Part shown: piece by piece, positions 15,718 through 57,731 of the stretch
How positions within the stretch are numbered: position 1 is the stretch's first letter
Layout: every line of letters starts with the position of its first letter
DNA from: a virus
DNA length: 64,000 nucleotides
Strand: one strand, 5' to 3'
IMG/VR virus record: IMGVR_UViG_3300024346_000015
Coordinates: 58,344 to 122,343 of that record
The notes under the pieces: model-generated
What the model saw: only the letters and a program-made list of their open reading frames with translations
The model's database searches: none
What the model was told of the DNA's origin: nothing
Position numbers and translations under genes: made by a program

Positions 15718-15743
15718 CATCATTCCTCATATTATAGGTGTCT

Positions 15744-15773
15744 ATTATAACACACTTTAGTCCCAAAGTCCAG
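15744..15773 (-). promoter_or_regulatory. Possible early promoter (CTGGAC-18-TATAAT)
   Basis: A perfect TATAAT lies 27 bases before the start at 15717, with a weak -35 18 bp upstream. It lacks the shared spacer seen in stronger promoters. Confidence 0.4.
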
Positions 15774-16164: not shown

Positions 16165-16730
16165 TTCCTTGTACTCACTACTACTCTACTGTTACCGTGG
16201 CCCGCGTTCACATTGAATGTGATAACTTCTTCGAAACCCAACCCCTCGATAATGTTCAGGAACTCACCTTTACTTATCTGTAACGGATCCATGTCAGATG
16301 ACGTGTTGTCTGATCCTACCATCAACTCAACACAAAGAATACCATCCTCAGTCAGTTGGTCTGTCCATGTCCGTAAACACTTTTCAGGATCGTAAGAATG
16401 ATCGAATGAGTTTGAGTATATCATGTTCCACTTACCAACCCACTCTTCCTTCACTTCATGAAAATCCCATTCGAACATATTGGAGATATCATTTGCGGTC
16501 GGAGATATATCAGTTCCAGCAACACACCCGTCAGGGTATTGATCGAGAAAGAATTGCAGTTCTCGACCGTTCCTTGCACCGTGACACAGAACACTATCGA
16601 CATCCGGATACATGAGTTGTATCTTCTTTACGGTAGATTCACTACACCAGACCGCATGTAACTTCTTTATATTTGCGTCTATCTGTAGTTGCTTATACTC
16701 TTCGTAGTTTTTATACTTCCATAGTTTCAT
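16161..16730 (-). CDS. SAM-dependent methyltransferase-like
   Basis: The start at 16730 (MKLWKYKNYEEYKQLQIDAN) forms an ATGA junction with the glycosyltransferase gene upstream. In the 189-residue product, VDSVLCHGARNGRELQFF is SAM motif I, CVAGTDISP the acidic motif II and WNMIYSNSFDHSYDPEKCLR the motif before catalysis. This is a Methyltransf_11-like arrangement. The target is probably a sugar, lipid or small metabolite given the neighbours. Confidence 0.65.
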   Translation of the reverse strand: MKLWKYKNYEEYKQLQIDANIKKLHAVWCSESTVKKIQLMYPDVDSVLCHGARNGRELQFFLDQYPDGCVAGTDISPTANDISNMFEWDFHEVKEEWVGKWNMIYSNSFDHSYDPEKCLRTWTDQLTEDGILCVELMVGSDNTSSDMDPLQISKGEFLNIIEGLGFEEVITFNVNAGHGNSRVVVSTRK

Positions 16731-17512
16731 ATCTGTGACATCAGTAGTTCGACATTCTCGCCCCGCTCGGGAAGTTTGTCTTTCAGGAAAAAGTGAATAA
16801 AGTGACATTCATCGATCTTTGTATTGGCGGTATAGAGACCGTTCCACACGTCACTCAAGTGTCTAGTCGGGATCTTGTATTTCTTCAAGAAGAAGTTTAG
16901 TAGGGTCTGGTCGGTACTCCACTTCCAAGAACCGATACCATCAACAAACTCTTTGAACTCCATACGGTTCAAGAACTGTTTGGCTGTCTGTCCTTTAAGG
17001 AATGGTTTGAATTTCTCAACGTTGATCACCATCAATCCCATGTTAAAGAACTCGAATCCTCGATCATTGGGTTTGAAGTCTGTCTTGTTAGAGTGTAACT
17101 GTGAGTACTGCATATGACTGTAGTTTCGGATCTTATCGACATACTGCGGAGTGATAGACATCTCACGTTCAGATACCGCAGCAAAGGCACAGTTGCAATC
17201 AAACTCATCTAGAATGTTGGGAGCAGTGTCACGGATATAGATGTCAGCGTCAATGATTATCAAACGGTCATACCCATCCATCATATCAAACGCATTCTCC
17301 TTCTCGTAGATAGGGAGATAACCACCGTGTTTCTTATATGAATCTTCACTACGATTGGTGAAGAATGGGTCGGGTGCGATCATTAGTTTGGGTGTAGTCT
17401 GAACAAAGTGATCAAACCCTAACCTCTCACAATAGTCATGAACACTGCGAATACAGTGTTGATATAACTTAGACGGTCTTCCCACCGAAACTTGATATAC
17501 TAGTGTCTTCAT
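16727..17512 (-). CDS. Glycosyltransferase, GT-A fold (GT8-like)
   Basis: The 261-residue protein contains YDRLIIIDADIYIRDTAPN, a DAD version of the DxD metal motif, then FEFFNMGLMVINVEKF, WSTDQTLLNFFLKK and a C-terminal HFIHFFLKDK, all typical of GT8-like enzymes. It is overlapped by 4 bases on both sides. Sugar specificity is not visible. Confidence 0.75.
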   Translation of the reverse strand: MKTLVYQVSVGRPSKLYQHCIRSVHDYCERLGFDHFVQTTPKLMIAPDPFFTNRSEDSYKKHGGYLPIYEKENAFDMMDGYDRLIIIDADIYIRDTAPNILDEFDCNCAFAAVSEREMSITPQYVDKIRNYSHMQYSQLHSNKTDFKPNDRGFEFFNMGLMVINVEKFKPFLKGQTAKQFLNRMEFKEFVDGIGSWKWSTDQTLLNFFLKKYKIPTRHLSDVWNGLYTANTKIDECHFIHFFLKDKLPERGENVELLMSQI

Positions 17513-18207
17513 TTTATTTTACCATCAGCCTTAAATAACGAAACGTGCTCTTTACCATGTTCTATTGTAGTACCTATATGTGCATGAACTATCTGTCTAC
17601 AATACTTTATATTCTTAACCTTACTTATCTTCGGTTGTCTAGGGTCTGACACATCATGCGAGATATCAGACAACAGATTCTCAAGGACACCGTCTACATT
17701 ATGTTTAACACCCGTTTTCCATATTGGTTGTTCGAGTATCCATTTTGCCATCGGACTTGTCATATACATTGCGGTACACGCCAGTTTTACAAGTCTACCT
17801 GTAGGTGCCACTTGGTGACCTAATAACGACCATTCCAAGTCCAGCAATAACAGTTTAGGTATGTAATGCAGGAGTTCAGTGTCATGTTCGCATACAATTC
17901 CACTCTCACCCGAATCAGCGATCATCTGGATCGCCTTTAAATAACTATAGAATATAGATCTCTCGGTCGGGGTGTGATCTCTATGTGGTACCTTAAAGTC
18001 CTTCTTATTGAACTTAATCCAGTTGTGCGGAGGCTTACCTTCCGTTGCCGGAGTTATCGCCTCAACACTCACCACCTCGTGATCGTGATCCCACCAAGTC
18101 GGTTCAGATAGTTCTCGATAATATTGAGAGATCTCATTATCACTGATAGATATCTGATATACTTTTACTCTATGTCCTGTAATCTTCAAGGTCAAATTCC
18201 GTACCAT
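17509..18207 (-). CDS. Glycosyltransferase family 25-like, divergent
   Basis: The 232-residue protein has RSIFYSYLKAIQMIADSGESGIVCEHDTELL, a GT25-type core with EHD, and later TAMYMTSPMAKWILEQ. Only one ATG is available, at 18207, which overlaps the radical SAM gene by 38 bases; an internal sigma70-like promoter (18236-18264) lies just upstream. Similarity to the other two GT25-like genes here is weak, so the call is less certain. Confidence 0.55.
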   Translation of the reverse strand: MVRNLTLKITGHRVKVYQISISDNEISQYYRELSEPTWWDHDHEVVSVEAITPATEGKPPHNWIKFNKKDFKVPHRDHTPTERSIFYSYLKAIQMIADSGESGIVCEHDTELLHYIPKLLLLDLEWSLLGHQVAPTGRLVKLACTAMYMTSPMAKWILEQPIWKTGVKHNVDGVLENLLSDISHDVSDPRQPKISKVKNIKYCRQIVHAHIGTTIEHGKEHVSLFKADGKIK

Positions 18208-19135
18208 GCATCTTCATTAAGTCACGTTCATGGTTAGTATACACTAAAACTTCGGGATCGTCAAGCAGAAAATCACATGTTTTACAATAATCTGGATAAT
18301 TCTTAGTTGTATGCATGTCACGTAGTTCTGTGTATTGAGGGCCATCCCAGATCTCTTGGATAGTATTCTCAGACGTATGACCCAGTACCGCCTCTTCGTC
18401 TTGACCCAGTACTTGACAACAAGGGGCAACCGCACCCGTCTTACCGTCCAGTCCACCGGCACGAATCACAACATCCGGAGAGAATGGTCGTCCACAAGTT
18501 TTGACCTCACCTTTACGTTCGTTCTGTTTGATGTCATATACACCAGACCAGTTGTGCATCTTCCAGATCTCGGTCTTCACCCCCAGATCATCTACCAACT
18601 CTTTATACGCATCTAGTTCATTGTCTAGGTTGTCGTTATCGGTAATCAGATGATAGGTTGCAACAGTACAATCTGATCCAGTCTTCTCGACATACTCTTG
18701 CATCTCTCGTATGTTCTTACAGATCAAATCGTAGTTACCACCTTGAGTGTTATACATCCACTCGTTGTACTTCTCTTTGTTGTATCCAATAAAAGAAAAA
18801 CGATAGAAGTCTAGTCCAGCGTCTACACAATCTTCCATGAACTTACCGTGCATACGGAAACCGTTAGAGAACATGAAACACTTAGCTCCATACTTCTTAA
18901 CGATCTTGATGTACTCAGGTAGTTGACGGTTCAGGGTAGGTTCACCCGATCCTTCTAGGTTTACAACACGCAATCCATGTTGGGCGCAATCACGAACATT
19001 GTCTTCAAACTCTAACAAGTTCATCTTACGTAGGAAACGTTTGTCACGTCCACCTGTACGCATATCCTGTGGACACATCGTACAAGAGTAGTTACACCCA
19101 CCATTAATCTCTATTACTGCTCTATCTATCTTCAC
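18170..19135 (-). CDS. Radical SAM enzyme with SPASM-type C-terminus
   Basis: The 321-residue protein has C14-x3-C18-x2-C21 in NGGCNYSCTMCPQDM, the cluster-binding motif of radical SAM enzymes, followed by NLEGSGEPTLN and MFSNGFRMHG. The C-terminal cysteines (KTCGRPF, APCCQVLG, YCKTCDFL) form a SPASM-like auxiliary cluster region. Such enzymes modify peptides or sugars through radical chemistry. It uses a GTG start with GGAG upstream, behind a late-promoter motif at 19160-19167. In this cluster it may tailor an unusual sugar. Confidence 0.9.
   Translation of the reverse strand: MKIDRAVIEINGGCNYSCTMCPQDMRTGGRDKRFLRKMNLLEFEDNVRDCAQHGLRVVNLEGSGEPTLNRQLPEYIKIVKKYGAKCFMFSNGFRMHGKFMEDCVDAGLDFYRFSFIGYNKEKYNEWMYNTQGGNYDLICKNIREMQEYVEKTGSDCTVATYHLITDNDNLDNELDAYKELVDDLGVKTEIWKMHNWSGVYDIKQNERKGEVKTCGRPFSPDVVIRAGGLDGKTGAVAPCCQVLGQDEEAVLGHTSENTIQEIWDGPQYTELRDMHTTKNYPDYCKTCDFLLDDPEVLVYTNHERDLMKMHGTEFDLEDYRT
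18236..18264 (-). promoter_or_regulatory. Possible internal promoter (TTGACG-17-TATACT)
   Basis: A near-consensus sigma70-like pair within the radical SAM gene, well placed for the glycosyltransferase start at 18207. It lies in coding sequence, so chance is not excluded. Confidence 0.4.
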
Positions 19136-19159
19136 TCTTTTTCTCCAATATGGGGAATA

Positions 19160-19167
19160 TATTTATA
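19160..19167 (-). promoter_or_regulatory. Late promoter motif TATAAATA
   Basis: A perfect late element 25 bases before the GTG start of the radical SAM gene, in one of the few gaps of the glycan cluster. Confidence 0.7.
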
Positions 19168-19168
19168 G

Positions 19169-19786
19169 TTACTTTATCTCAAATATCCAACTGGTATCCA
19201 TGAATACCTTATCGGGTTCCCCTAACATTGCATGTACTGCCTCGACCACTTCCGGCCATCCTTGTGGATCATAGTCGTGACCAGCAATGAACCCACCCTT
19301 TTTTAGTTTGGGTAAGTACAGTTGAATATCTAAACATACGGAATCGTAAGTGTGGTCTGCGTCTATATAGATGAAGTCAAAGAACTCGTCTTCGAACAAC
19401 TCTACCGCAGATTTGGATTTCCCACGAATGACATGGAATTTTTGATGACAGTAGTCAGGTACACTCGGCCCATACATTCTAGTATTGTAATTAAACTCAT
19501 CACGAATGTCTTTCCAAGTTAACTCTACGTCATCGTTTCTAACTTTATACTCATCGTCAGGGCCTGCCCAAGGATCTACTGCATAGAATCCAGATGTCCA
19601 CAATCCACTTGCAAGAAACATTTGAGTAGACTCACCCATGAATGACCCGATCTCGATACCTTTATACTCTTTTTTGTTAGGTCGGTTCTCGTGATAATAG
19701 GATATCAATTGAGTTAACCCCAAGTACTGGTGATTGACTTTAGGGTTTATCCATTCTGGCGGTGGTCTATATCTCATGTATCCCAT
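19169..19786 (-). CDS. Class I methyltransferase, Methyltransf_24-like
   Basis: In the 205-residue protein YKGIEIGSFMGESTQMFLAS is SAM motif I, GFYAVDPWAG the acidic motif, and FFDFIYIDADHTYDSVCLDI with KKGGFIAGHDYD is the hallmark of Methyltransf_24 enzymes acting on sugars or antibiotics. It lies between the radical SAM gene and a GT-B-like gene, consistent with O-methylation of a glycan. Confidence 0.8.
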   Translation of the reverse strand: MGYMRYRPPPEWINPKVNHQYLGLTQLISYYHENRPNKKEYKGIEIGSFMGESTQMFLASGLWTSGFYAVDPWAGPDDEYKVRNDDVELTWKDIRDEFNYNTRMYGPSVPDYCHQKFHVIRGKSKSAVELFEDEFFDFIYIDADHTYDSVCLDIQLYLPKLKKGGFIAGHDYDPQGWPEVVEAVHAMLGEPDKVFMDTSWIFEIK

Positions 19787-19792
19787 AACACT

Positions 19793-20653
19793 TTACTCTT
19801 TTTTAATTAATCTCAATATTCTCTTTCTGTATGATATGGTCTTCTTCTTGGTGTGACCTAACATCAATTTGACATCCTTTACCCAAAACCATATATTCGT
19901 TTTTGCCTTTCCGGAAGCTGAAGCACGTACAGCATTCGGTGTGTGATATTTCGTAATTCCTTCATCACTAGATACTATCATAGGAATACACGCATTCCTC
20001 GCTATGTAATGCCACATACCATCGTAACATAACACCATACGACTAGTATTGATATGAAACATCGCTTCTCTAACCGGAGTTCTGTAGGTCAATTCTACTA
20101 CATGTAATCCGGCTTGGCGGAGAAGCCCTAGTATAACATCCCAGTCATCATTTGTCAAGAGCCTTTTCCATAATCTTGGAATTTCTGCATTATGCAGTGG
20201 TCTCCATATAACAACCTTCATTCGATTGTAATAAAGTGGCGCATTAACACCGGATATATCGTTTCGGAATAACCAGTCGTTATCCGGTGCCTTACCACCA
20301 GACTTTTTAGGCCCATCGTGTACGTGACCGTCCTCAAACCAGAATCTATTCTTCTCTTTCAGGTTCTTCTGATCTTCGTCATTATAGAAGTATCGAGTAC
20401 CTTCACGTTGATCGAACAGGTGAGTAACTCTTACTCGATCCTTGTCCATATACAGATTGTGAATATACTCCAGTCTTTCTATAATGGTCTCTTCTTCTTC
20501 AAAATGGTGTAGATGGTCAGGCCCGTGTGGCCAATGAAACTCAAGGTTTATAATCAGGTCGTTCTTCTGAGCGTGTAGGTGACACGAATTCAACGCCCAC
20601 ATAAAGTCACCTACGCCAGGTGTACCACGCCAAGTTGCCTTGATCTCTTTCAT
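19793..20653 (-). CDS. Putative GT-B-like protein, unknown
   Basis: The 286-residue protein opens MKEIKATWRGTPGVGDFMWA, with a Gly-rich loop like that of GT9-type GT-B enzymes, and later has MFHINTSRMVLCYDGMWHYI and ACIPMIVSSDEGITKYHTPN, resembling their donor-binding region. Basic residues dominate the C-terminus. Family assignment is tentative. A consensus-like promoter occurs within its coding sequence. Confidence 0.5.
   Translation of the reverse strand: MKEIKATWRGTPGVGDFMWALNSCHLHAQKNDLIINLEFHWPHGPDHLHHFEEEETIIERLEYIHNLYMDKDRVRVTHLFDQREGTRYFYNDEDQKNLKEKNRFWFEDGHVHDGPKKSGGKAPDNDWLFRNDISGVNAPLYYNRMKVVIWRPLHNAEIPRLWKRLLTNDDWDVILGLLRQAGLHVVELTYRTPVREAMFHINTSRMVLCYDGMWHYIARNACIPMIVSSDEGITKYHTPNAVRASASGKAKTNIWFWVKDVKLMLGHTKKKTISYRKRILRLIKKE
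20130..20158 (-). promoter_or_regulatory. Possible internal promoter (TTGACA-17-TATACT)
   Basis: A near-perfect sigma70-like pair within the GT-B-like gene, about 340 bases before the methyltransferase start. Expression from it is unproven. Confidence 0.35.
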
Positions 20654-20998
20654 CTACTTTCGCTTAGCTAATGCTTCTTTACCATAGAACGCGGCAACGA
20701 TTGCAGCGACAGATACAAAGTATGTCGGTGCCATATCACCCAGAGTCTTACCCGCATTATCTAATCCTACAATCTCACAGAACACAACCAGAGACGGATA
20801 CAACAACATACCGAACAAGGCAAACCATGCCATGTTACGTTGTGCATCACGCATTGCATCCGCATCTTCGAGTTCTTTGCGTTTAAACTCCAGATGCATT
20901 AATAGTTCCTTTTCGGAAACATGACCGTCACCGTTGACATCTGCACCGGCAAGGGTACCATCACTATCGACAGTTATACTTCTCTTATCTTCTGACAT
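20654..20998 (-). CDS. EF-hand membrane protein
   Basis: The 114-residue protein has one EF-hand-type calcium loop, DVNGDGHVSEKE at about 19-30, a short coiled-coil stretch and two hydrophobic segments near residues 52-75 and 90-105. It probably sits in the inner membrane with the calcium loop in the cytoplasm or periplasm. I recall similar small proteins in marine T4-like phages, of unknown role. Confidence 0.65.
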   Translation of the reverse strand: MSEDKRSITVDSDGTLAGADVNGDGHVSEKELLMHLEFKRKELEDADAMRDAQRNMAWFALFGMLLYPSLVVFCEIVGLDNAGKTLGDMAPTYFVSVAAIVAAFYGKEALAKRK

Positions 20999-20999
20999 C

Positions 21000-22472
21000 T
21001 TAAAATACCTTTACTTTATATTTCTGTTCCCATAACCTAGCGTCATGTTCGTTGTTGACCATAGGTCTTCCCCGTATGTTCAATGATGTATTTAGTAACA
21101 TAGGAACTCCGGTTCTTTCATAGTACTCTTCGATAACCTTTCTGAACACTGACTGACAATCTTTCTTTACGACTTGTACTCGTGCAGTACCGTCTACGTG
21201 TGTGACAGACTTGTAGTCATGTTTTGCGGTAGACGTGTATTGCATGTACTCGTTCATAGGGCCATCAAAGTACTCCTCTGCATACTCCTCTAGGATAGCA
21301 GGGGCGAATGGACGGTACTTCTGTCTGCGTTTGATAGTGTTGACTGTGTCCTTTACGTCATATCTCACGTCTGCAATCAGAGACCGATTACCTAACGCAC
21401 GTGGGCCAAACTCTGCCCTACCGTTCGCCAGACCGCATACTTTCTTGTCTAAGAGGTGATCGACTACTTCCGTAGGGTTTATGTCTCTTTCTATATTGTA
21501 ACCAAGATATGGTGTCCATACCAACTGATCTTTTCCGGTTGCTTGACTCCACGCATGGGCCGCACATCCTAACGATGATCCCGCATCTGTAGGAGATACC
21601 GCAATGTGAACATCATCGAATAGTTCTGGTAGTCTTGAATTGATAACAACATTCTGAGCGCAACCACCAGAGTAAACAAGTTTGTTACCGTACTGACGTG
21701 CCTTCGTCATGATTTCCATAATCGCCCACTCTGCAAACTTCTGTACAGTCATTGCAAAGTCACGGTGTTCCATACCACCGTTTAGTCTCTTCTCCATGAT
21801 CTTCCACATTCGAGCTCTCTCGATCTCAGACAGTGAGGTTCGTTCTGCATTAATAACGTTACCCATGGCGATGTCGGCATTGACATCAGGTTGTTCTTGA
21901 TACCAGTCCTTCAGGTCATAGAATAACTGTTCGTTCGGAACGCCATAAGAACTTAGTCCCATAACAACATACTCGTCCTCAAGTGGACGCAAACCCAACA
22001 GTTTTGTGGCGGCCGTGTAGACTAATCCTACGGACTTAGGATATGTTTGTTCATACACTAGATTGAAGTTACTGTCTAGGATGACAGTTGTTTGATGTTC
22101 CCCCACGCCATCGATCGATACCATAACTGTAGAGTCACGGTCTTTCCAAGGTCGTGTATAAAATGCACCAGCACAATGAGAAACGTGGTGAGACGTGAAT
22201 GTGTCTGGCTCAGGGAAGTAGTGTTCTGATTTGACTTTTAATAGTGCGTCAGTGAAGGGTCGCCTTATTTCATTCTTTAAGTCGGTGTCTTCATAAAAGG
22301 ATATGTGGTCGGACTTTTTGTGATAATCCCACAAGGACTGTGGGATCCACGCTGTATTTTTATTTTGATCAAAACGTTCGGCATGGGACGCAAATTCAAT
22401 CGTCCCATCCTCGTTTATTATTGATAATCCGGCATCATGATAGTTTTGCGAGTATCCGGTATAACGGGTCAT
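21000..22472 (-). CDS. Carbamoyltransferase, NodU/CmcH-type
   Basis: The 490-residue protein opens GYSQNYHDAGLSIINEDG and includes FTSHHVSHCAGAFYTRPW (histidine-rich motif of the N-terminal domain), MVSIDGVGEH, VYSGGCAQNVVINSRL and FGPRALGNRSLIADVR, all conserved in O-carbamoyltransferases that use carbamoyl phosphate and ATP. It is somewhat shorter than typical bacterial members. It would put a carbamoyl group on a sugar or other hydroxyl, consistent with the neighbouring methyl- and glycosyltransferases. Overlaps the HAD gene by one base. Confidence 0.9.
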   Translation of the reverse strand: MTRYTGYSQNYHDAGLSIINEDGTIEFASHAERFDQNKNTAWIPQSLWDYHKKSDHISFYEDTDLKNEIRRPFTDALLKVKSEHYFPEPDTFTSHHVSHCAGAFYTRPWKDRDSTVMVSIDGVGEHQTTVILDSNFNLVYEQTYPKSVGLVYTAATKLLGLRPLEDEYVVMGLSSYGVPNEQLFYDLKDWYQEQPDVNADIAMGNVINAERTSLSEIERARMWKIMEKRLNGGMEHRDFAMTVQKFAEWAIMEIMTKARQYGNKLVYSGGCAQNVVINSRLPELFDDVHIAVSPTDAGSSLGCAAHAWSQATGKDQLVWTPYLGYNIERDINPTEVVDHLLDKKVCGLANGRAEFGPRALGNRSLIADVRYDVKDTVNTIKRRQKYRPFAPAILEEYAEEYFDGPMNEYMQYTSTAKHDYKSVTHVDGTARVQVVKKDCQSVFRKVIEEYYERTGVPMLLNTSLNIRGRPMVNNEHDARLWEQKYKVKVF

Positions 22473-43153: not shown

Positions 43154-43426
43154 TTATGCCAGATCCTTATCGTGATTTAGTGTGCCTTTTTTCTTTTTGA
43201 CTATGAACGCATTTACTCGTGCATGTCCCCATTGTTGTGGAGTGGTGCCTGGTCTGTGACCCGTCTTCCATGCCGCTACTCCACGGTTATATACCTTCTT
43301 GAGTGTAGCAGGCGATATACCAGACTTCTTTGCCTTCGCAGCAATACCGTCCGAACCTTCCTTTACGTCTACCTCATCGTACATAGAATATCGTTTTTCT
43401 TCTAAGTATTTCTTGAAATTAATCAT
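43154..43426 (-). CDS. Small DUF5824-like protein with capsid-targeting-like N-terminus
   Basis: The 90-residue protein starts MINFKKYLEEKRYSMYDE and contains KKSGISPATLKKVYNRGVAA with AWKTGHRPGTTPQQWGHARV, a domain (DUF5824-like) I recall in many phages. The N-terminus is T4-internal-protein-like. The domain looks DNA-binding (helix-turn-helix-like), but no function is proven. Confidence 0.65.
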   Translation of the reverse strand: MINFKKYLEEKRYSMYDEVDVKEGSDGIAAKAKKSGISPATLKKVYNRGVAAWKTGHRPGTTPQQWGHARVNAFIVKKKKGTLNHDKDLA

Positions 43427-45159
43427 TTGGTTTCTCTATTCTTTGCTTTGGTTGCGGCCAATCTTGCACGATCCATCATACGATCATGTTTTGCCTTGTC
43501 AGCTTCCTTCTCACGGTCAATGGCATCTTTTGCGGCAGAGACATCGTCTTCACCCAGTAGACCGTGGAGGACTTTTCTATCCATACCACTATACGTATTG
43601 GCGATCTTTTGTGCATAATAGTCAGTACTATGTCGCAACTTACCACCGTTCTCTTTCTTTTTACGTACCAATAAATCTTTTAATGTCTTCAATGCGTGTT
43701 GATACTGCTTCTTATTCGTAGTAACCGACTTCAACTTGTTTAACATTCTACCCTCTGTTGTTTCAGTGGTAATAACATTAGAGGTAGTTTTGAAGTTTTT
43801 CTTACGCATTATTGTTTTGTTAACAACTTCGAACTCATCCTTCTTACGGTCATAGTTTATGACAACCGGAAGATTCAAATCAGTTTGTAAATCTTTAATG
43901 ACCGCTTCACTGTCAGGATTCTGACGAATGTTCTTCGCCTTCCTCTTTGCGATCTTCTTGAATACACGTTGTAACTCAGCCACCGTGATAGGTGGATCAT
44001 TACGTTTGTCATTCATACGGTCAGCGAAATGCCGTGTGAACTCGATATCGACATCGAACTTTGCGAGCAGTCGGTCTGCGAACTTCTCAAGGTCGTTGAG
44101 TTGTTTTTGACTGACTTCTTCGTACATGTCTTTGAATTGTTTGGTGTACTTGGATGGTTTCGTTTTCGCGGTAGCATCGCCTGGAGCGGGTTTATAGGCT
44201 GAATCATCATCGTCTGCTTTCTTCCCGTGTTTCTTAAAGTGTGCATCACGTGCAACCTTAGTGGACTTCTTGAGACCAGAGTGATAACGTGCGGGTTGAG
44301 TACCTTTGCGATCCTTGATATCAGAATCTTGTGCTTCGACTAATTCAATTGCGTCAATCCACTTGCGATACTTCTTATCCCCGCACTCTACGATTACGTA
44401 GTTGGAACCCAGAAACTTTACCACGCCAAGTTCTTCAGACTCTTTAACGACAACTGAATCACCCACTTGGAAAAGATCCCCCTGCACATACTGTTCTCTT
44501 GTTTCAGAAACAGGCGCGAGTTCAACGTGGTTCTTGAAAGATCGTTCTTCCGATAACCCCATACCCTTACGTACATCATTGAATAAAGACCGTGCGTCCT
44601 TGTTGGACATAGTTCTAGGAACACCCTGAGAGAAACTAACGAAGTCATTTTCGGATGCATTCGCTCGTTGTTTGGATGCGGACATACCTTCAACACCTTC
44701 CGCATCGGGATCTCTTGCTCCCGCAGATACTATCTTGATACTTTTAAAGTTGTAGAAACCGTGTCTAGCTTGTTTCGCATTGTATTTGTTGAGTAACGTT
44801 TCGAACTCTCGAATACGATCTGCACCGACAACCATAGTTACATTGCGGTAACCTTGGTCATACAATGATGCAGCTACATCAAATACGTTTTTGATCTTTT
44901 TGTCCATCATAACATTCCGTGCATGTTTTGGGAACATCTTACGGATATGTTTAACTTTCTGAGAATATGTCAACGGATCCTTTTTAGGATTCTGTGACTG
45001 AGACACAAACACCTTGTAGTCTGATTTACCAGACTTAGATGCCAGTGTATCCATTACCTTACCATGACCAATTGTTGGAGGATTCATTCTACCAAAGGTA
45101 AAATAACATTCTCTCTCTTCTTCAATCAGGTATTGTGAGAAATTTTTAAGATTCTTCAC
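43423..45159 (-). CDS. Multi-domain nucleotidyltransferase-like protein, packaged type
   Basis: The GTG start at 45159 has GGGG upstream and gives 578 residues beginning MKNLKNFSQYLIEEERECYF, a targeting-type N-terminus with LIE. FTFGRMNPPTIGHGKVMDTL and TMVVGADRIREFETLLNKYN (to about 165) are the cytidylyltransferase/HIGH-superfamily core. A linker with SDIKDRKGTQPARYHSGLKK and a C-terminal domain with DIEFTRHFADRMNDKRNDPP follow, as I recall from marine T4-like phages. It may act on nucleotides or cofactors in the infected cell after ejection. Confidence 0.7.
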   Translation of the reverse strand: MKNLKNFSQYLIEEERECYFTFGRMNPPTIGHGKVMDTLASKSGKSDYKVFVSQSQNPKKDPLTYSQKVKHIRKMFPKHARNVMMDKKIKNVFDVAASLYDQGYRNVTMVVGADRIREFETLLNKYNAKQARHGFYNFKSIKIVSAGARDPDAEGVEGMSASKQRANASENDFVSFSQGVPRTMSNKDARSLFNDVRKGMGLSEERSFKNHVELAPVSETREQYVQGDLFQVGDSVVVKESEELGVVKFLGSNYVIVECGDKKYRKWIDAIELVEAQDSDIKDRKGTQPARYHSGLKKSTKVARDAHFKKHGKKADDDDSAYKPAPGDATAKTKPSKYTKQFKDMYEEVSQKQLNDLEKFADRLLAKFDVDIEFTRHFADRMNDKRNDPPITVAELQRVFKKIAKRKAKNIRQNPDSEAVIKDLQTDLNLPVVINYDRKKDEFEVVNKTIMRKKNFKTTSNVITTETTEGRMLNKLKSVTTNKKQYQHALKTLKDLLVRKKKENGGKLRHSTDYYAQKIANTYSGMDRKVLHGLLGEDDVSAAKDAIDREKEADKAKHDRMMDRARLAATKAKNRETK

Positions 45160-45613
45160 TCTTGCCCCTCTTACGTGCCAATTCTTGTTTGCGAACTTTG
45201 GGTAACAATTTCTTCGCAAGTTTATCGATTTTAGGTTTCATTTTGTCCAGACGTTTTTCGATTTCCATTCGTCTAGCCATATTTAGGTCGGCTTTACCGA
45301 CACCTTTTGTCAACTTTTTGGCAAGCATATTACGTGCTTGTTTCTTCGCACGTTTCTTTAGGGTATCCATATTAGCAATCTTACGTGCAGCTCTTGCACG
45401 ACCTATTGCGATCTTGGGGGCGAGTTTCTTCATTTGACGCGCCTTCTTCAGACGCTGTTGAATATTAAGAGCCGCTTGGAGTTCTACCTCTTCACTGTTG
45501 TTACCAGTGGGTATATCCTTTTTGCGTTTCTTACTATTGAGCGCGAGTTGATCATCTCCGGTCTGAGTATAATCGACTGCTATGAAATCTTTAAAACCTA
45601 ACTTCTTAGGCAT
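45146..45613 (-). CDS. Basic internal protein, conserved in T4-like phages
   Basis: The 155-residue protein is strongly basic and helical, with RLKKARQMKKLAPKIAIGRA, ARKIANMDTLKKRAKKQARN and KRLDKMKPKIDKLAKKLLPK. I recall the 'IGRARAA.K.A.MD.LK.RA.KQAR' block as conserved in marine T4-like phages. The N-terminus MPKKLGFKDFIAVD is targeting-like. DNA-condensing internal head protein is the likely role. Confidence 0.65.
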   Translation of the reverse strand: MPKKLGFKDFIAVDYTQTGDDQLALNSKKRKKDIPTGNNSEEVELQAALNIQQRLKKARQMKKLAPKIAIGRARAARKIANMDTLKKRAKKQARNMLAKKLTKGVGKADLNMARRMEIEKRLDKMKPKIDKLAKKLLPKVRKQELARKRGKSEES

Positions 45614-50632: not shown

Positions 50633-51598
50633 TTAGGCAGAGGCGAACTCAACTGCCTTGTTAACTGCGTTGACCTTACGGTTCTGGTTAGCACCGAACC
50701 ATGCAGAACTCATTCGAGTGTCAGCACTACGACCCATCTCGTGGTCAGTCAAGTAGGTCACACTGTTCAGTGCTTGCCACCAAGTACCACGTCCAAACTC
50801 TGCTCCTGGCTGAGTCTCTAACAGATCAAACGCTTTCTTTGCGTTAGTGGTCAGATCATCGTACTTCTCAACCGCGACAGGATTCTTACCGTGATAGGTA
50901 CGTGGGAACACTTCGTTGTAGTACTTGATGAGGTTGTCCATAGAGAATCTCTTTGAAGATAGGAACTGAGACATCTCTTTGAACTGGTCAAACTTCTCGT
51001 GGGCAAGACCCATAGTAGTTTTAACGTGATCCGCATCGAATACGTTACGGTGGTTCATCTTAACACCGTTGATCGCACGACCACGAAGGGCAGTAGCGAG
51101 AGTGTTCATACAAGACACACGGATCGGAGTGAATCGGATATCGACAGACTTACCGTAATCGTGTGGGTTGGAGAACAACAAGTAAGAATCAACACGGTCA
51201 CCGTCCATCACATCGAACGACTCGTTGATCTTGGCCAATGCCCAAACCATCTTACCACCTTTCAGTGAACCGGCAGTGTGCATTTCCATACCACCTTCTA
51301 GACAGTACTCGTTGAAGAACTCAAAGGCAGTTTCGTTTTGGACTGGATTCCACTTACCACCAACTTGGGTAAGAATCTTGTTATCTGTAGAACGAACGAG
51401 TGCTTCCATTCCGGTCGGGACTTCTTCCCCGCCCACTCGTGCGTATGTAGGAATTTTTGATACTGACCAGTCTAAACCAGCCTTCTGCATCATTTGTTGT
51501 GGAGACAGGTCATTTGATACTTGTGTACCAATCTCACCCCAAGGTGAAGAACCAGCGTATGCCATAGTCTCGATCTGAAGGATATCATTCATGCTCAT
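50633..51598 (-). CDS. DUF932 / phage-plasmid primase-associated-type protein
   Basis: The 321-residue protein matches DUF932 proteins: WGEIGTQVSNDLSPQQMMQKAGLDW near the start, then a VRSTDNKILTQVGGKWNPVQ beta strand block, RVSCMNTLATAL and, late, LNSVTYLTDHEMGRSADTRM with AWFGANQNRKVNAVNKAVE. They are abundant in phages and plasmids, of uncertain biochemical role. Monocistronic: own promoter and a strong terminator, suggesting high expression. Confidence 0.85.
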   Translation of the reverse strand: MSMNDILQIETMAYAGSSPWGEIGTQVSNDLSPQQMMQKAGLDWSVSKIPTYARVGGEEVPTGMEALVRSTDNKILTQVGGKWNPVQNETAFEFFNEYCLEGGMEMHTAGSLKGGKMVWALAKINESFDVMDGDRVDSYLLFSNPHDYGKSVDIRFTPIRVSCMNTLATALRGRAINGVKMNHRNVFDADHVKTTMGLAHEKFDQFKEMSQFLSSKRFSMDNLIKYYNEVFPRTYHGKNPVAVEKYDDLTTNAKKAFDLLETQPGAEFGRGTWWQALNSVTYLTDHEMGRSADTRMSSAWFGANQNRKVNAVNKAVEFASA

Positions 51599-51688: not shown

Positions 51689-53509
51689 TTATTTTAAGAA
51701 AGTGTATATTTCTATGAGTTCTTCTTTACCCTTAACTTTGATGTCCCCAATCTTACGGGATACTGTGTCGGTCAATTGGTCTTTGGTGTGACTTGAGTAG
51801 ATGGTCGGGAAGTCTTTGTAGTCCCCTCGTGCAGCCGTTGCTTCCAATCGTGCGGCAAGGTTTACCGCGTCACCGATAACTGAATAGTCAAATCTGGACT
51901 CAGAACCCATATTACCAACAATACAGTCTCCGGTATTAATGCCAGTACCAACATTGATGTCAGGAAGACCTCGCTCTTTGTAAGTTTCCTTAAGCTCATC
52001 TGTTTTCTCCTCTATTTCTTTGGCAGACTTTACTGCCATGTCTGCGTGGTTCTCACAGGGTACAGGTGCGTTCCAGAACGCCATGATACAGTCACCCATG
52101 TACTTATCGATAGTACCACCGTTGTTTAAGATAATCTGTGTCATCGCATCTAGGAACTCATTGACCAACTCAACCAATCCTTCGGGATCATCGTTGTTCT
52201 TGTAGTGTTCTGAGATCGGAGTGAAGCCACATATATCCATAAATAAGAACGACATCTCCTTACGTTCGCCCCCTAGTTTCAAAAGTGATGGATCCTTCTG
52301 AAGCATATATACCATGTCCGGAGATAAATATGTCCCGAACTGTTTTTTTACTTGCTCTTTCAATTTGTATGTGGTATAATACTGATTAAAAGACGATTGC
52401 CCAAATACAAGGAACCCCGCAATTGAGACCCAAACGATATCCAGCACAAAGTAAGAATTACTCCAGACGATCCACGATATTATCGGGACGCTTGAAAGAA
52501 ACAAAACAGAACTTATCACCCCAACAACTGTGGGAAATCTATAGACCGATACAAGGATTCCTAGACACACTACCAAAATCGAAAGCACTTCAACTATTAG
52601 ACTCCAGTCGGGCCTCTGTATTTGAACACCTGAGAGTACGGTCTGAATTTGATGGCCTTGAACTTCGTGGGGATACACTGCACCCATTGGGGTTGGTACT
52701 GGATTAGCAACTCCCTCTGCGGTCACACCTAAAATTATTATCTTACCTTCGGGGATGGGTTCGAGTATACTCTGAGACTTAAAGTCGTGCCAGAAGGCAA
52801 CAGGCAACTCTGAGGACGGCTCTGTGACCAAAGGATCCTGTTTACCCAGTCTTATCCACTCTACACCAAGAGAATTGTATTTCACGGTGTAGGATGGTTC
52901 CCCTATCCACACCCTAACGGCGTCTAACCCAAGAGAGGGGTACGGTTGTCCGTTGATGCCTACCATTAATGGTGTCCGTCTGAGAACACCTGTAGGTTGA
53001 TCAACTTCAGCGGATACTGCACCCACCCCCATACTCATCTGTGCGAGTTCCGGAATAGGTATCAGTATACCACTGTAGTCGATTAGTGAATCTATAGGTT
53101 TACCGAACGTAGATACGTTGGCATATATCCCTAGATCATCCGTAGTAGTTTGGCGTGTAGGTGCGCTGGCCAGGATTACGGGTTTTAGGGCGATTGATTT
53201 TGATAGTTCCAGATCCCCCGCAAACCGATCGGGTTCTGACCATATCATTGTTGATACTATTAGAGAATTGGGTGGTGCTTGGTTGATATACTTGGCGATT
53301 GTCTTTCGCGGCCACGGGTATTGTCCTTCCTTTTCAATTGATGCTTCATCTATGTTTACCAATACAATATCGTCTATCGAGATAACCTCGTGACTTTGTT
53401 GTAGTTGATCGTAGTATGCGTACTGCAACGACTTCACAATGTCGATCTGCGATACTTTTAAAACCGCGAACAGAATGATCACGGGGATGACACTATACCA
53501 CTTTGTCAT
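51689..53509 (-). CDS. CHASE2 sensor - class III adenylate cyclase
   Basis: With ATG at 53509, in ATGA overlap with the curlin-like gene, the product has 606 residues. It has an N-terminal membrane segment, a periplasmic CHASE2 domain (about 35-300) with IDDIVLVNIDEASIEKEGQY, WPRKTIAKYI and ILGVTAEGVANPVPTP, three further membrane helices (about 305-385), and a class III cyclase domain from about 413. Metal ligands D425 (FMDICGF) and D473 (KYMGDC), K469 and D541 for adenine, and N550/R554 (VNLAAR) are all present, so it should make cAMP from ATP. CHASE2 senses an unknown periplasmic cue. It ends the curli-type operon. Confidence 0.9.
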   Translation of the reverse strand: MTKWYSVIPVIILFAVLKVSQIDIVKSLQYAYYDQLQQSHEVISIDDIVLVNIDEASIEKEGQYPWPRKTIAKYINQAPPNSLIVSTMIWSEPDRFAGDLELSKSIALKPVILASAPTRQTTTDDLGIYANVSTFGKPIDSLIDYSGILIPIPELAQMSMGVGAVSAEVDQPTGVLRRTPLMVGINGQPYPSLGLDAVRVWIGEPSYTVKYNSLGVEWIRLGKQDPLVTEPSSELPVAFWHDFKSQSILEPIPEGKIIILGVTAEGVANPVPTPMGAVYPHEVQGHQIQTVLSGVQIQRPDWSLIVEVLSILVVCLGILVSVYRFPTVVGVISSVLFLSSVPIISWIVWSNSYFVLDIVWVSIAGFLVFGQSSFNQYYTTYKLKEQVKKQFGTYLSPDMVYMLQKDPSLLKLGGERKEMSFLFMDICGFTPISEHYKNNDDPEGLVELVNEFLDAMTQIILNNGGTIDKYMGDCIMAFWNAPVPCENHADMAVKSAKEIEEKTDELKETYKERGLPDINVGTGINTGDCIVGNMGSESRFDYSVIGDAVNLAARLEATAARGDYKDFPTIYSSHTKDQLTDTVSRKIGDIKVKGKEELIEIYTFLK

Positions 53510-54243
53510 TGTTGTGTTATTGTAACAGAACAACCGCCTACTGTCAAGCAATTTTGCTGTAAAGTATAGGTTGCGGTTGAATTAAATTGTTTGAGAGTCA
53601 AGTCAGTACCATACGTACCGTCAAGAGTTATATTTGCGGTATGGGTTGCGTTGGGCCCTTTCTGACGGATGAACACATCGTTCTCGTCATTGTAGATATT
53701 GAGGTTGATTTCCTTTGCACCATCGTGTTGTTGGATGGTCGTAACCTCGTTGTTGTCTCCAGCTACGTGTAGATCGACTGCATGACCATCGACACTACCT
53801 TGATTGGTCTGTTGAATAGAAACACCGTTGTTGTCTCCGTGAACGGTTAGGTCAACGGTATGTCCACCGCCTTCCCAGTTATCGTACCAATAGTCATGGT
53901 TGGTATAACTCTCTGGATAATCGAATGCACATCCTTGACAGATCTTTACTCCATTACCAGAACCACTCATCTCATCTGTTGTAATCTTGTTTACAGAAGA
54001 AGTGTCTTCGTTGTATTGAATGAATAGAAGTCCACTATAGGTGGTGTTGATAAATGATCCAGTATCTAACATATCCACCACATTGTGTGAACCGACTTGT
54101 TCTATACCTAAACTGAAATTAGTACCGGATTGATCGATAGTTATTTGATTGTCCGCTGATGCGGTATCGGTGAAGAAACATATTAGACCAATGAAGAATA
54201 TGGCCATGATACATGTATCTCTGAATTCGTTGTCGTCTTTCAT
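53506..54243 (-). CDS. Curlin-like secreted subunit 2
   Basis: The 245-residue protein has a long n-region and a hydrophobic signal peptide (MAIFFIGLICFFTDTASA), then curlin-type repeats such as NQITIDQSGTNFSLGIEQVG and HGDNNGVSIQQTNQG, in which Q-x-G-x-N and Q residues recur about every 20-25 residues as in CsgA/CsgB. Cysteine pairs ICQGC and CLTVGGC are unusual for curlins. It probably forms or nucleates an amyloid-like fibre outside the cell after export through CsgG. Follows the FecR gene. Confidence 0.75.
   Translation of the reverse strand: MKDDNEFRDTCIMAIFFIGLICFFTDTASADNQITIDQSGTNFSLGIEQVGSHNVVDMLDTGSFINTTYSGLLFIQYNEDTSSVNKITTDEMSGSGNGVKICQGCAFDYPESYTNHDYWYDNWEGGGHTVDLTVHGDNNGVSIQQTNQGSVDGHAVDLHVAGDNNEVTTIQQHDGAKEINLNIYNDENDVFIRQKGPNATHTANITLDGTYGTDLTLKQFNSTATYTLQQNCLTVGGCSVTITQQ
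53519..53547 (-). promoter_or_regulatory. Possible early-type promoter before the cyclase gene (TTGACA-17-TACAAT)
   Basis: TTGACA at 53542-53547 and TACAAT at 53519-53524 lie within the end of the curlin-like gene. The transcript would begin almost at the ATG at 53509, so its use is doubtful. Confidence 0.35.
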
Positions 54244-54244
54244 A

Positions 54245-55390
54245 TCAATTGCTCTGTCTTATTACCACCAAAATGTCATCACCCCCGTCTGCGGTGATCG
54301 TTCCTACGTAACCTTCTACCTCTGTATCTAGTCTTATACTACCTCCGGTTAAAAAGTTCAATGCAATAACACCGTTTACGTCACGGTAGAAAACAATACC
54401 TTGGTCTTCTTGGAAAACTGCATATTGACTGTCAACGTTCTTACCCCAGACAGCACCCTTCAACCTTATCGCACCACCACCTCTACCCGATTGCATATCT
54501 TCGAGATCACCCATAGTGCGTACTAATGCTTCTACTTCATCTAATAGATCCACCAACAATTCTGAGTCAAGTGCATCATAGTCTAATCTAGTGTAGACCG
54601 GATCTTCAGCGTAATCATCATATGACTTTTCCAGTTCATCGAACTGAAGGAAGTCTGCGTCCAATGAACCCATGTCTATATCAGCGTCATCTAACAACTG
54701 TTCTTGTATCGCCTCTGCCACTTCATCGGGTGGACTGACAATGAACATGTTATCGATTGACGATGGTGTTATATTCTCGATGACCACAACTCTGGTCGGA
54801 GGCGAGTCTAAACTAGACACCATTGTCGTTGCATAGGCTTGAGTGAGAGTAGTCTCACCCGCATCATTAGAAACAACAATCTCACCAGACGGATTACCAT
54901 ATTCGTCCGGTAATAATATAACGAGAGTCCGACCCAACTCATCGATCGTTGTAGTGAAATCCGTTCCACGGACAGCAATCTGTGCAGTCGGGGTAGAGAT
55001 ATCGATATTCTTCTTATCTACCATTCCCAATCGACCAGACGCAAATCGAGCAGTCCCAAGTGCCATCTTCATGACCATCTTAGACTTACTCGGATCTGGA
55101 TCGTAATACACCTTATCAATAAAGACTTTGGTGTGTTCGATCAACGACAACTCAGCATCATCCTTGAACTTAATTAACATCCTTCCCTTTGCAGTTTGGG
55201 CTGTATCATTAAGTTCTATGTCAGTGCCTACCACGGACGATATGACATCCGTCTCTCTTAGCAAAGAACCGATTCCTTTCGATTCAACTATCCCGCCGAT
55301 AGATTCTGCATGTACTACCCCAGAACCCATTGACAGTATAACACTAATTATCGTTGGCGTTATCTTTCTGATTAATCTGTATGACTGCAT
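54245..55390 (-). CDS. Secreted FecR-domain protein
   Basis: The ATG at 55390 gives 381 residues with a signal peptide ending near GSGVVHA. The FecR domain follows: TAKGRMLIKFKDDAELSLIE, TKVFIDKVYYDPDPS, KMALGTARFASGRLG and ISTPTAQIAVRGTDFTTTID with the 'A.RGT.F' hallmark. The second half is acidic and contains a beta-rich stretch. FecR-domain proteins of this soluble type commonly accompany CHASE2 proteins and probably relay a periplasmic signal. It overlaps the upstream curlin-like gene by 47 bases. Confidence 0.8.
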   Translation of the reverse strand: MQSYRLIRKITPTIISVILSMGSGVVHAESIGGIVESKGIGSLLRETDVISSVVGTDIELNDTAQTAKGRMLIKFKDDAELSLIEHTKVFIDKVYYDPDPSKSKMVMKMALGTARFASGRLGMVDKKNIDISTPTAQIAVRGTDFTTTIDELGRTLVILLPDEYGNPSGEIVVSNDAGETTLTQAYATTMVSSLDSPPTRVVVIENITPSSIDNMFIVSPPDEVAEAIQEQLLDDADIDMGSLDADFLQFDELEKSYDDYAEDPVYTRLDYDALDSELLVDLLDEVEALVRTMGDLEDMQSGRGGGAIRLKGAVWGKNVDSQYAVFQEDQGIVFYRDVNGVIALNFLTGGSIRLDTEVEGYVGTITADGGDDILVVIRQSN

Positions 55391-56069
55391 TGTCTGACGT
55401 AATATCCATAGTAATGATACCCTTACACGACTGTATTCCGGTTGGACACGTACCACTTAACTGGTTGATGTCGATATCCGCATTGTCACCGGCAAACTCT
55501 ACTGTCTGTGTCTGATAGAAACCATCGTTCTGTAATGATACTATGTTATTACCGTCACCAGTAATGTCCCAGTCCCAAGTTACGTCATCGGTCTCAACGT
55601 CAATGTCGAACACATTAGAAGATCCAAGAACCTGTAGATCTAAATCTAAACGTTCAGAAGATGCAGCTGCACCTTGATCGAAATCAATTGTGTTAGAGTC
55701 GCCCGTCATTGTGATATCCATTGTGGTAGCGTCCGTAGATCCTATATCACCAATGAAATAATCGAGTACGTTAGCATCACCAGTCCACAGTAAATTGTAT
55801 GTAGAACTGTTAGATGTCAATGTACCGAACAACAGGTTTTCGTTACCAACTTGATCGATGTTAAATGTTAGTGAGGAACCTGTGATCGGTGTCGCACTAG
55901 AATTTGTCGCGAAGTTGTCTAAACCAATTTTGTTACCGTAACCAATCTGATCGATATAAAGGGTAAGCGTGTTACCCGATTGATCGATGTTGATCTCGTT
56001 GTCGTCAGATGCTGCACCATAACTTAAACTAGAAAACAGTGCAACTAGTCCTATTAAGTACTTATTCAT
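55344..56069 (-). CDS. Curlin-like secreted subunit 1
   Basis: The 241-residue protein has a clean signal peptide (MNKYLIGLVALFSSLSYGA) and at least seven repeats of about 22-30 residues, for example NIDQSGNTLTLYIDQIGYGN, FNIDQVGNENLLFG and DITGDGNNIVSLQND. Asn, Gln and Gly recur at curlin-like positions and the rest alternates hydrophobic and polar, as in a beta-solenoid amyloid. A late CPTGIQSC pair is unusual. It follows csgG with an 8-base overlap, so synthesis of pore and substrate is coupled. Confidence 0.8.
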   Translation of the reverse strand: MNKYLIGLVALFSSLSYGAASDDNEINIDQSGNTLTLYIDQIGYGNKIGLDNFATNSSATPITGSSLTFNIDQVGNENLLFGTLTSNSSTYNLLWTGDANVLDYFIGDIGSTDATTMDITMTGDSNTIDFDQGAAASSERLDLDLQVLGSSNVFDIDVETDDVTWDWDITGDGNNIVSLQNDGFYQTQTVEFAGDNADIDINQLSGTCPTGIQSCKGIITMDITSDNAVIQINQKDNANDN

Positions 56070-56982
56070 CGTCTTTACTTTCTCCTATCGGGTGACCTTC
56101 GTTTGTCCCATCATGCTGATGGGGATGACGATGTCCTGTCCCTACTTTCCAAAGACCTCTATCATGTCCTTGGTAGATTAACTCTAGTACGCCCGCTTCT
56201 ATAGCCGTTCGTACCGCATATGTCACTGATTCATTATTTCCCACTCCGTCTTCATACTCCACCAGCTGTGTCCCCTGTTCGTAAAATCTAAACAAGTCTC
56301 CACCCGCACCATAACTAAGAATCGTCTTTGTACTCTGGACGTTCAACAAAACTTCTCCCGTCAGAACAGAAACTGCTCTGATAGAAACCGTCACAATATC
56401 TTTACGATACTGCCTAGAGAATCCGATACCTAATGTTCTGGCACCTCGTCCTCCAGTCTGGATATTGGTATCATAACCAATAATACCTCCTTCAATAATC
56501 ATACCAGCAAAGAGCAAAGGCCCAATACTACCAGACTTCTCGTCAGAGTATTCCTTACGGGTTGATCGAACGATCTGTCTCTCTCGTACCAGATTATCGA
56601 TGCCCTGTCTCTCTACTACACGGAACCACTTACCTTGGGATGCCGTCTTGAGAGCGTCTATTAATAACTCGGTTCCCCCTTGGGATACCGCAGTACTGAA
56701 GTCCGCAATTCCATCGCGTGCCTTCCGTTGACCAGTGAGATCCTTAAATCCATATACAGCTACAACTGGCATGTTTGTTGCCGGTGGTACGTTTAATAAG
56801 TCAACGTATGCCGGCAACTTTACTACTGTAGGTTGATCTACGCAAATATACTTGCGAGACATAACCTTGTCTAATCCTTTGTCCGTTCCACAATCTTTCG
56901 GGTTTTCTGACCATTGTGGTATCTGAGCGCAACCTGTCATAAAAATGACGCTCAACAATAGTAGATGCAATTTACGTACCAT
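56062..56982 (-). CDS. csgG: CsgG curli secretion pore, outer-membrane lipoprotein
   Basis: The ATG at 56982 gives 306 residues with a lipobox ending at C18 (VIFMTGC). The body follows E. coli CsgG closely: MPVVAVYGFKDLTGQRKARD, STAVSQGGTELLIDALKTA, WFRVVERQGIDNLVRERQIV, MIIEGGIIGYDTNIQTGGRG, KDIVTVSIRAVSVLTGEVLLN, TKTILSYGAGGDLFRF and a final IYQGHDRGLW. CsgG forms a nonameric outer-membrane channel for unfolded curlins. A His-rich tail follows. Confidence 0.95.
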   Translation of the reverse strand: MVRKLHLLLLSVIFMTGCAQIPQWSENPKDCGTDKGLDKVMSRKYICVDQPTVVKLPAYVDLLNVPPATNMPVVAVYGFKDLTGQRKARDGIADFSTAVSQGGTELLIDALKTASQGKWFRVVERQGIDNLVRERQIVRSTRKEYSDEKSGSIGPLLFAGMIIEGGIIGYDTNIQTGGRGARTLGIGFSRQYRKDIVTVSIRAVSVLTGEVLLNVQSTKTILSYGAGGDLFRFYEQGTQLVEYEDGVGNNESVTYAVRTAIEAGVLELIYQGHDRGLWKVGTGHRHPHQHDGTNEGHPIGESKDDE

Positions 56983-57472
56983 CACCACCATCACTCCCGT
57001 CTGTACCGAAGTTACCTGTTCCGACAGGTATTTCGATCACGGTCTCAGTTCCATCTGTGTCGATGATAGTCATCTTGATGTAATCTTCACCGGCTTCGTT
57101 GGTGAGTACCTCATATGACACAACTGATCCCTCAAGGGTAAATGACCCAAAGGTTACTGCATTTTCGTTGCTGAACATATTGTCCACCAACTGTTTAGAT
57201 AGTTGTGCATAGATTCTACTCTCTAGGTTACGTATGAACTTGGCTAAGGTTGTATTCTCTGCTTCCCGTTCTGCGGCCTTTTGTGCCGCCTCTAACGCAT
57301 CCTCGATAGATTTCTTTCTACTGTGTTCTTGGTTTTCAATGGTGAGATAGTGTGATCCAGTACCCACTCCACTAAAGGACGGGTTCTTAAAACCAAATGT
57401 TATCTCTGACGTTGCCGCCAATGGCGACATCATTACCAAAACAAGAATACTACTTGTTAGTCTTTTTATCAT
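56972..57472 (-). CDS. csgF: CsgF-like curli assembly factor
   Basis: The ATG at 57472 gives 166 residues with a signal peptide (MIKRLTSSILVLVMMSPLAA). The mature start TSEITFGFKNPSFSGVG matches the CsgF N-terminus (TFQFRNPNFGG), the part that plugs into CsgG, and YAQLSKQLVDNMFSN with the C-terminal beta region fits CsgF as well. It couples secretion to fibre nucleation at the cell surface. A Lys/Glu-rich helix in the middle is an addition. It overlaps csgG by 11 bases. Confidence 0.85.
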   Translation of the reverse strand: MIKRLTSSILVLVMMSPLAATSEITFGFKNPSFSGVGTGSHYLTIENQEHSRKKSIEDALEAAQKAAEREAENTTLAKFIRNLESRIYAQLSKQLVDNMFSNENAVTFGSFTLEGSVVSYEVLTNEAGEDYIKMTIIDTDGTETVIEIPVGTGNFGTDGSDGGDGT

Positions 57473-57731
57473 TTCGTTCAACCATTTCCTGCTGTTGCAG
57501 TATCATATCTAATTTAGTACGCAATCTAATCAAGTCATTGTCGAGCATTCGTACTCGATCGATCAACTGGATCAGAGTCAAATGCGACTCCTCTATCACT
57601 GGATCTACATGGTCAGTAACCCAGTGCCACACATAATAGATGAAGTACCCTAATCCTATACAAGCGATAATGGGGAATCCATATGTGTTTATCATGTCTA
57701 CGATATTTAGTGATTCGATAGGTTCCATCAA
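57450..57731 (-). CDS. Membrane/coiled-coil protein, curli operon gene 2
   Basis: The 93-residue protein has an N-terminal membrane segment (GFPIIACIGLGYFIYYVWHW) and a coiled coil with IDRVRMLDNDLIRLRTKLDM. It is a distant relative of the gene before it and of small proteins in marine T4-like phages. Overlaps both neighbours (4 and about 23 bases). A holin-like or secretion-accessory role is possible. Confidence 0.65.
   Translation of the reverse strand: MMEPIESLNIVDMINTYGFPIIACIGLGYFIYYVWHWVTDHVDPVIEESHLTLIQLIDRVRMLDNDLIRLRTKLDMILQQQEMVERNDKKTNK

What the first reader, a model, noticed from the sequence alone, without database searches (positions are those of the whole stretch)
51689..53509. 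A CHASE2-adenylate cyclase with all catalytic residues in a phage genome
All class III cyclase residues are present (two metal Asp, Lys/Asp for adenine, Asn/Arg for transition state), so it should be active. Phage-encoded membrane sensors producing cAMP are very unusual. Because CHASE2 faces the periplasm, the enzyme could read fibre export or envelope state and change host cAMP-CRP regulation, or intersect with cyclic-nucleotide defence.
Basis: partly seen in the sequence, partly recalled or inferred. Interest (0 to 1): 0.75.

Follow-up and report, generated by a model that had tools for sequence, protein, structure and literature searches.

The report
Cyclase gene in phage curli operon
A marine tailed phage carries an intact membrane cAMP-making enzyme as the last gene of a curli (amyloid fibre) secretion operon; this gene set is already known from ocean phages, but here its sensor and enzyme halves are seen to be swapped between phages and its partner gene looks like a borrowed bacterial signalling partner.

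Summary
ORF 51689-53509(-) encodes CHASE2 plus a class III cyclase domain in a T4-like phage. The adenine pair is Lys469/Ser543 (class IIIb), not Lys/Asp; the other catalytic residues are present. It is not very unusual: it closes a fixed operon csgF-csgG-curlin-FecR-curlin-cyclase, published for SAR11 phages (PMC9599517), annotated in HTVC008M and Melnitz, and common in IMG/VR. Order held in 95/95 cyclase-seeded loci; 36/36 CsgG-seeded loci keep FecR and cyclase. New here: (1) bacterial relatives lie near FecR genes (36/80), never near curli, and ten bacterial curli loci lack both, so the phage module joins two bacterial units; (2) sensor and catalytic domains are exchanged between phages at one junction; (3) FecR is Sec-exported, lacks anti-sigma architecture and ends in a curlin-like strand motif in 65/65 phages (1/37 bacterial FecRs); (4) some relatives, including Melnitz, have Ser for the transition-state Asn. 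Best reading: FecR relays fibre export or envelope state to the CHASE2 cyclase, whose cAMP acts on a host effector (no cNMP-binding domain in 11 phage records). Mechanism inferred, not tested.

The parts
51689..53509 (-). CHASE2 adenylate cyclase, 606 aa: TM1 ~8-20, CHASE2 ~22-300, three TM helices ~303-391, cyclase domain ~413-604
53506..54243 (-). second curlin-like secreted repeat protein (curB), 245 aa, signal peptide, ends in VTITQQ
   Evidence: sequence; repeats listed; no Pfam hit
54245..55390 (-). FecR-domain protein; ATG at 55390 gives a Sec signal peptide (MQSYRLIRKITPTIISVILSMGSGVVHA), no later TM helix, C-terminus VVIRQSN
   Evidence: PF04773 E 1e-7; alignment; hydropathy; model
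55344..56069 (-). curlin-like secreted repeat protein (curA), 241 aa
   Evidence: PF07012 E 0.0026, below cut-off; weak CsgA/CsgB match
56062..56994 (-). CsgG outer-membrane curli pore, lipobox MTGC
   Evidence: PF03783 E 5.7e-51
56972..57481 (-). CsgF
   Evidence: PF10614 E 1.8e-16
52314..52384 (-). sensor/output junction (residues ~376-399: end of last TM helix to QVKKQFGTYLSP linker) where identity jumps between mosaic homologues

Best explanation
It is an inner-membrane class IIIb adenylate cyclase whose CHASE2 domain lies in the periplasm, and the last gene of a phage curli (type VIII secretion) operon. Shown: intact domains and active-site residues, purifying selection, fixed operon, mosaic evolution. 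Inferred: during infection the phage makes the CsgGF pore and secretes curlin-like subunits; the exported FecR-domain protein is the periplasmic partner of CHASE2 and reports whether subunits or fibres are being exported (or the state of the envelope); CHASE2 passes this through the membrane to the cyclase, and the cAMP acts on a host effector, probably a CRP-family regulator, to tune the infected cell's surface and metabolism.
For: Domains and catalytic residues; in 70 full-length proteins found with CHASE2-only seeds (query included), D425, D473, K469, R554 and K593 are invariant. Model mean pLDDT 86.8 with one TM helix, CHASE2, three TM helices, cyclase; cyclase matches CyaB and CyaC structures. 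dN/dS 0.15 against L006. Operon order in 95/95 loci with room upstream; 36/36 CsgG-seeded loci with 7 kb downstream keep fecR and cyclase (contigs overlap the earlier sets in part). Bacterial CHASE2 cyclases have a FecR-like ORF within 10 kb in 36/80 loci, 13 of 42 well-covered loci directly upstream on the same strand, against about 0.016 expected per 20 kb from 0.78 FecR per Mb. Campylobacterota CHASE2 cyclases cluster with a FecR outer-membrane protein (PMC9239204). In S. meliloti an outer-membrane barrel (NsrA) signals to CHASE2 cyclases (PMC13001267) and CyaD1 without CHASE2 makes cAMP constitutively (PMC5498481). FecR has a signal peptide and a curlin-like tail.
Against: No binding between FecR and CHASE2 is shown; FecR-CHASE2 co-divergence beyond csgG is weak (partial Mantel 0.23, p 0.002, but the bootstrap interval of the difference from csgG includes zero). 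The FecR C-terminal domain shows no profile match to the curlins, so the shared tail is a short motif only. No cAMP effector in the phages; host unknown. Relatives of the Melnitz type have Ser for Asn550, so full activity may not be required in all phages.
Confidence: 0.5

Rival explanations
1. The cyclase answers an intracellular cue such as bicarbonate/CO2 (class IIIb enzymes with Ser or Thr at this site are known for it); CHASE2 is mainly an anchor and dimeriser.
For: Lys/Ser site aligned with CyaC and its Thr; the bicarbonate property of this subset is general knowledge, not tested here.
Against: CHASE2 is retained in all loci, has its own invariant residues, and CHASE2 removal deregulates a bacterial relative. 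Some phage relatives carry Asp at this site with the same operon.
Confidence: 0.2
2. It is a constant cAMP source that reprograms the host (catabolite control, surface or biofilm genes); it senses nothing in particular.
For: Fast-changing CHASE2 and exchangeable catalytic domain suit a loosely tuned input.
Against: Fixed link with FecR in phages and frequent link in bacteria.
Confidence: 0.2
3. It counters or mimics cyclic-nucleotide defence (Pycsar-like) in the host.
For: Best PADLOC matches are PycC cyclases, E 1.3e-24.
Against: Only the common cyclase fold is matched; CHASE2 membrane architecture; no defence gene seen in the operon; Lys at the base-binding position predicts ATP as substrate.
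Confidence: 0.04
4. A non-functional passenger or contaminating host DNA.
For: None found.
Against: Phage hallmark genes on the same record; dN/dS 0.15; invariant active site; phage clade separate from bacteria.
Confidence: 0.02

Closest known systems
Pelagiphage type VIII secretion (curli) module, Wittmers et al. 2022 mSystems, PMC9599517
   Same: Same gene set and order: CsgF, CsgG, CsgA/B, FecR, second CsgA/B, adenylate cyclase
   Different: No histidine kinase gene noticed before csgF here (not searched for specifically); the main text does not contain the word CHASE2, reads FecR as an iron regulator, and in the parts read does not describe the sensor/output mosaic or the bacterial FecR-cyclase pairing
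HTVC008M AGE60353 and Melnitz QZI94611 'adenylate/guanylate cyclase'
   Same: Same operon position and architecture
   Different: 42.5% and 31% identity; Melnitz has a different cyclase subtype with Ser for Asn550
Bacterial CHASE2 adenylate cyclases (S. meliloti CyaD1/CyaD2/CyaK; Campylobacterota CHASE2-AC with FecR protein)
   Same: CHASE2 plus class III cyclase, often with a FecR gene
   Different: About 33% identity at best in the genomes scanned; no curli genes nearby
Class IIIb cyclases CyaC (1wc0) and CyaB (3r5g)
   Same: Catalytic fold and Lys plus hydroxyl residue
   Different: No CHASE2 in the aligned part; Ser instead of Thr

Membership tests
CHASE2 domain (PF05226) | profile match over cut-off, full length, between TM helices | tested here: met
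   107 bits vs 26.3, positions 3-254/257; TM layout
Class III nucleotidyl cyclase | two metal Asp, transition-state Asn and Arg | tested here: met
   D425, D473, N550, R554
Class IIIb subset | Lys paired with Thr/Ser instead of Asp | tested here: met
   K469/S543 aligned with CyaC and CyaB
Adenylate (not guanylate) cyclase | Lys at the base-selecting site; product cAMP | tested here: inconclusive
   Lys present; product not measurable here
Phage curli (T8SS) module | csgF, csgG, curlin, FecR, (curlin), cyclase in order | tested here: met
FecR anti-sigma regulator | cytoplasmic N-terminal sigma-binding part and one TM helix; partners FecI and FecA | tested here: not met
   signal peptide then periplasmic domain; no sigma70_r2 or TonB plug in the record
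Pycsar | PycC cyclase with a PycTM/PycTIR effector | tested here: inconclusive
   fold-level PycC matches only; effector not searched with its own model
Complete enterobacterial curli system | CsgE, CsgC and CsgD also present | not tested
   no separate search was made; not seen among the ORFs scanned in the operon

The most novel reading that the evidence does not exclude
Phages fused two bacterial devices, a curli exporter and a FecR-CHASE2 cyclase sensor, into one operon in which an exported FecR protein tipped with a curlin-like strand reports fibre assembly to a cyclase whose output domain is swapped between phages like a plug-in: a virus-encoded feedback loop from extracellular amyloid to host cAMP.
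Probability: 0.25. Interest if true: 0.8.

Novelty: new member of a known kind. Interest (0 to 1): 0.42.

Why it matters
Phage curli modules have been reported since 2020 with no agreed function. Reading FecR plus CHASE2 cyclase as one sensory pair, rather than an iron regulator and a loose cyclase, gives a testable role: infected marine bacteria would couple fibre export to cAMP. The sensor/output swapping shows that phages treat the catalytic domain as exchangeable, which suggests that the signal input, not the enzyme, is the part matched to the rest of the module or the host.

Tried and rejected
Phage-encoded cAMP effector: PF00027 absent from the window record and ten relatives. FecI/FecA partners: absent. 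FecR C-terminal domain as a curlin homologue: hhalign negative. Bacterial curli operons with FecR or CHASE2 cyclase: none in ten (5 alpha-, 5 gammaproteobacterial) loci. RNA families in the window: none. Promoter scan: a TTGACA-17-TACAAT site lies just before the cyclase start (53547-53519), but the number of sites is no higher than in shuffles. Host assignment: not attempted beyond composition and named relatives; left open. The FecR structure model is poor (mean pLDDT 69) and was not searched.

Full report
Observation. The ORF at 51689-53509(-) is real: 606 aa, ATG start overlapping the upstream stop, with CHASE2 and class III cyclase domains well over cut-off. Alignment with solved cyclases places D425 and D473 at the metal sites, K469 at the base-selecting site, N550 and R554 at the transition-state sites. 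The record carries terminase, portal, T4-type capsid, sheath and baseplate genes, so it is a contractile-tailed phage.

Context. The gene is last in a same-strand run csgF, csgG, curlin-like, FecR, curlin-like, cyclase. The same set was reported for Pelagibacter podo- and myophages (PMC9599517) and lies in HTVC008M and Melnitz. PHROG 35576 already covers the protein over its full length. In 95 of 95 loci with at least 5 kb upstream of the cyclase, csgG, fecR and a curlin are present in this order, csgF in 94. Seeding on CsgG instead, 36 of 36 loci with at least 7 kb downstream have fecR and the cyclase; part of these contigs are the same as before and all are close to the query, so this does not speak for distant podophages, where the paper says the cyclase is sometimes missing.

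Is it active? The first set of relatives was found with patterns that include the active site, so conservation there is biased. A second set found with CHASE2-only seeds gives 70 full-length proteins (query included): D425, D473, K469, R554 and K593 in all; Ser543 in 43, Thr in 11, Asp in 16; Asn550 in 54, Ser in 16. The 16 are one subtype, which Melnitz shares, with Asp543 and Ser550 together. The query itself has the full set. dN/dS against the near relative L006 is 0.15 (0.06 in the cyclase part). The AlphaFold model (mean pLDDT 86.8) has one N-terminal helix, a mixed CHASE2 domain, three helices and the cyclase domain; Foldseek matches for the latter are CyaB, CyaC, Cya2 and photoactivated cyclases. 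With the N-terminus inside, four membrane helices put CHASE2 in the periplasm and the cyclase in the cytoplasm; this is inference from helix count.

Mosaic sensor and output. Pairwise identities differ between the halves: L183 has CHASE2 50% to the query and 31% to Melnitz but cyclase 38% to the query and 81% to Melnitz; HTVC008M and Melnitz share 51% in CHASE2 and 37% in the cyclase; query and L082 share 29% and 82%. Sliding identity changes at residues ~376-391, at the end of the last helix. Separate trees disagree: CHASE2 data reject the Melnitz-type proteins as one clade (AU p 0.0036) and cyclase data reject the query's CHASE2 clade (p 1e-8). The groups were named after seeing the trees, so the p values are optimistic, but the likelihood gaps are 256 and 98 units. 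Across 65 dereplicated modules, distances of csgF, csgG, curA and fecR run together (rho 0.85-0.89), CHASE2 less (0.43-0.53), the cyclase hardly (0.08-0.19).

Origin. Phage cyclases form one side of a fully supported branch against 49 bacterial CHASE2 cyclases (quick tree, midpoint root). A FecR-like ORF lies within 10 kb in 36 of 80; among 42 loci with 6 kb on both sides, 25 have it, 15 within 500 b, 13 of these directly upstream on the same strand. The density of FecR in 31 of these genomes is 134 in about 171 Mb, so about 0.016 per 20 kb is expected. None of the 80 has csgF, csgG or curlin nearby, and ten bacterial curli loci have neither FecR nor cyclase. So the phage operon joins a bacterial FecR-cyclase unit with a curli unit. 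CsgF itself was found over cut-off in only 5 of 385 alpha- and 6 of 369 gammaproteobacterial genomes.

FecR. The likely start at 55390 gives a Sec signal peptide; the rest has no membrane helix. Sigma70 region 2 and TonB plug domains are absent from the record. This does not fit an anti-sigma FecR. All 65 phage FecR proteins end in a hydrophobic-x-hydrophobic-x-Gln strand like the curlins in the same operon (63/65 curA, 43/49 curB, though these repeat proteins have the motif often anyway), against 5% by composition and 1 of 37 bacterial FecR-like ORFs. Profile comparison finds no homology of the domain to curlins, so this is a shared short motif, perhaps for export through CsgG or docking to the fibre.

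Mechanism. Bacterial precedents link CHASE2 cyclases with outer-membrane or periplasmic partners. The most likely reading is FecR to CHASE2 to cAMP to a host effector. Co-divergence of FecR and CHASE2 beyond csgG is only suggestive. No cNMP-binding domain occurs in eleven phage records, so the effector should be the host's; whether the host has a CRP protein was not tested, since the host is unknown.

Verdict. A new member of a known phage module, with a corrected active-site class, a better-supported partner gene and a new finding of domain exchange. Ordinary in presence, interesting in mechanism.

Noticed in passing
window 10208-11080 (-): Zeta-toxin-like kinase (PF06414, E 1.2e-8) in the phage
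   Followed up: no
window 12868-22472 (-): Surface-sugar type cluster: glycosyltransferase families 25 and 8, radical SAM/SPASM, methyltransferase, carbamoyltransferase
   Followed up: no
window 43423-45219 (-): 598-aa protein with a cytidylyltransferase-like domain and a weak DUF5824 match
   Followed up: no
window 50633-51598 (-): DUF932 protein, directly downstream of the cyclase
   Followed up: no
L086 and L183, L205, L208, L210, L213, L222: Melnitz-type cyclase domain with Asp543 and Ser550: transition-state Asn replaced, at three separate places on the CHASE2 tree
   Followed up: partly
L125, L136, L142, L158 upstream of the cyclase: Very large FecR-domain proteins (over 2000 aa) directly before CHASE2 cyclases in Bradyrhizobium
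   Followed up: partly
window 53519-53547 (-): Extended -10 type promoter-like site, 11/12, just before the cyclase start; count of such sites not above chance
   Followed up: no
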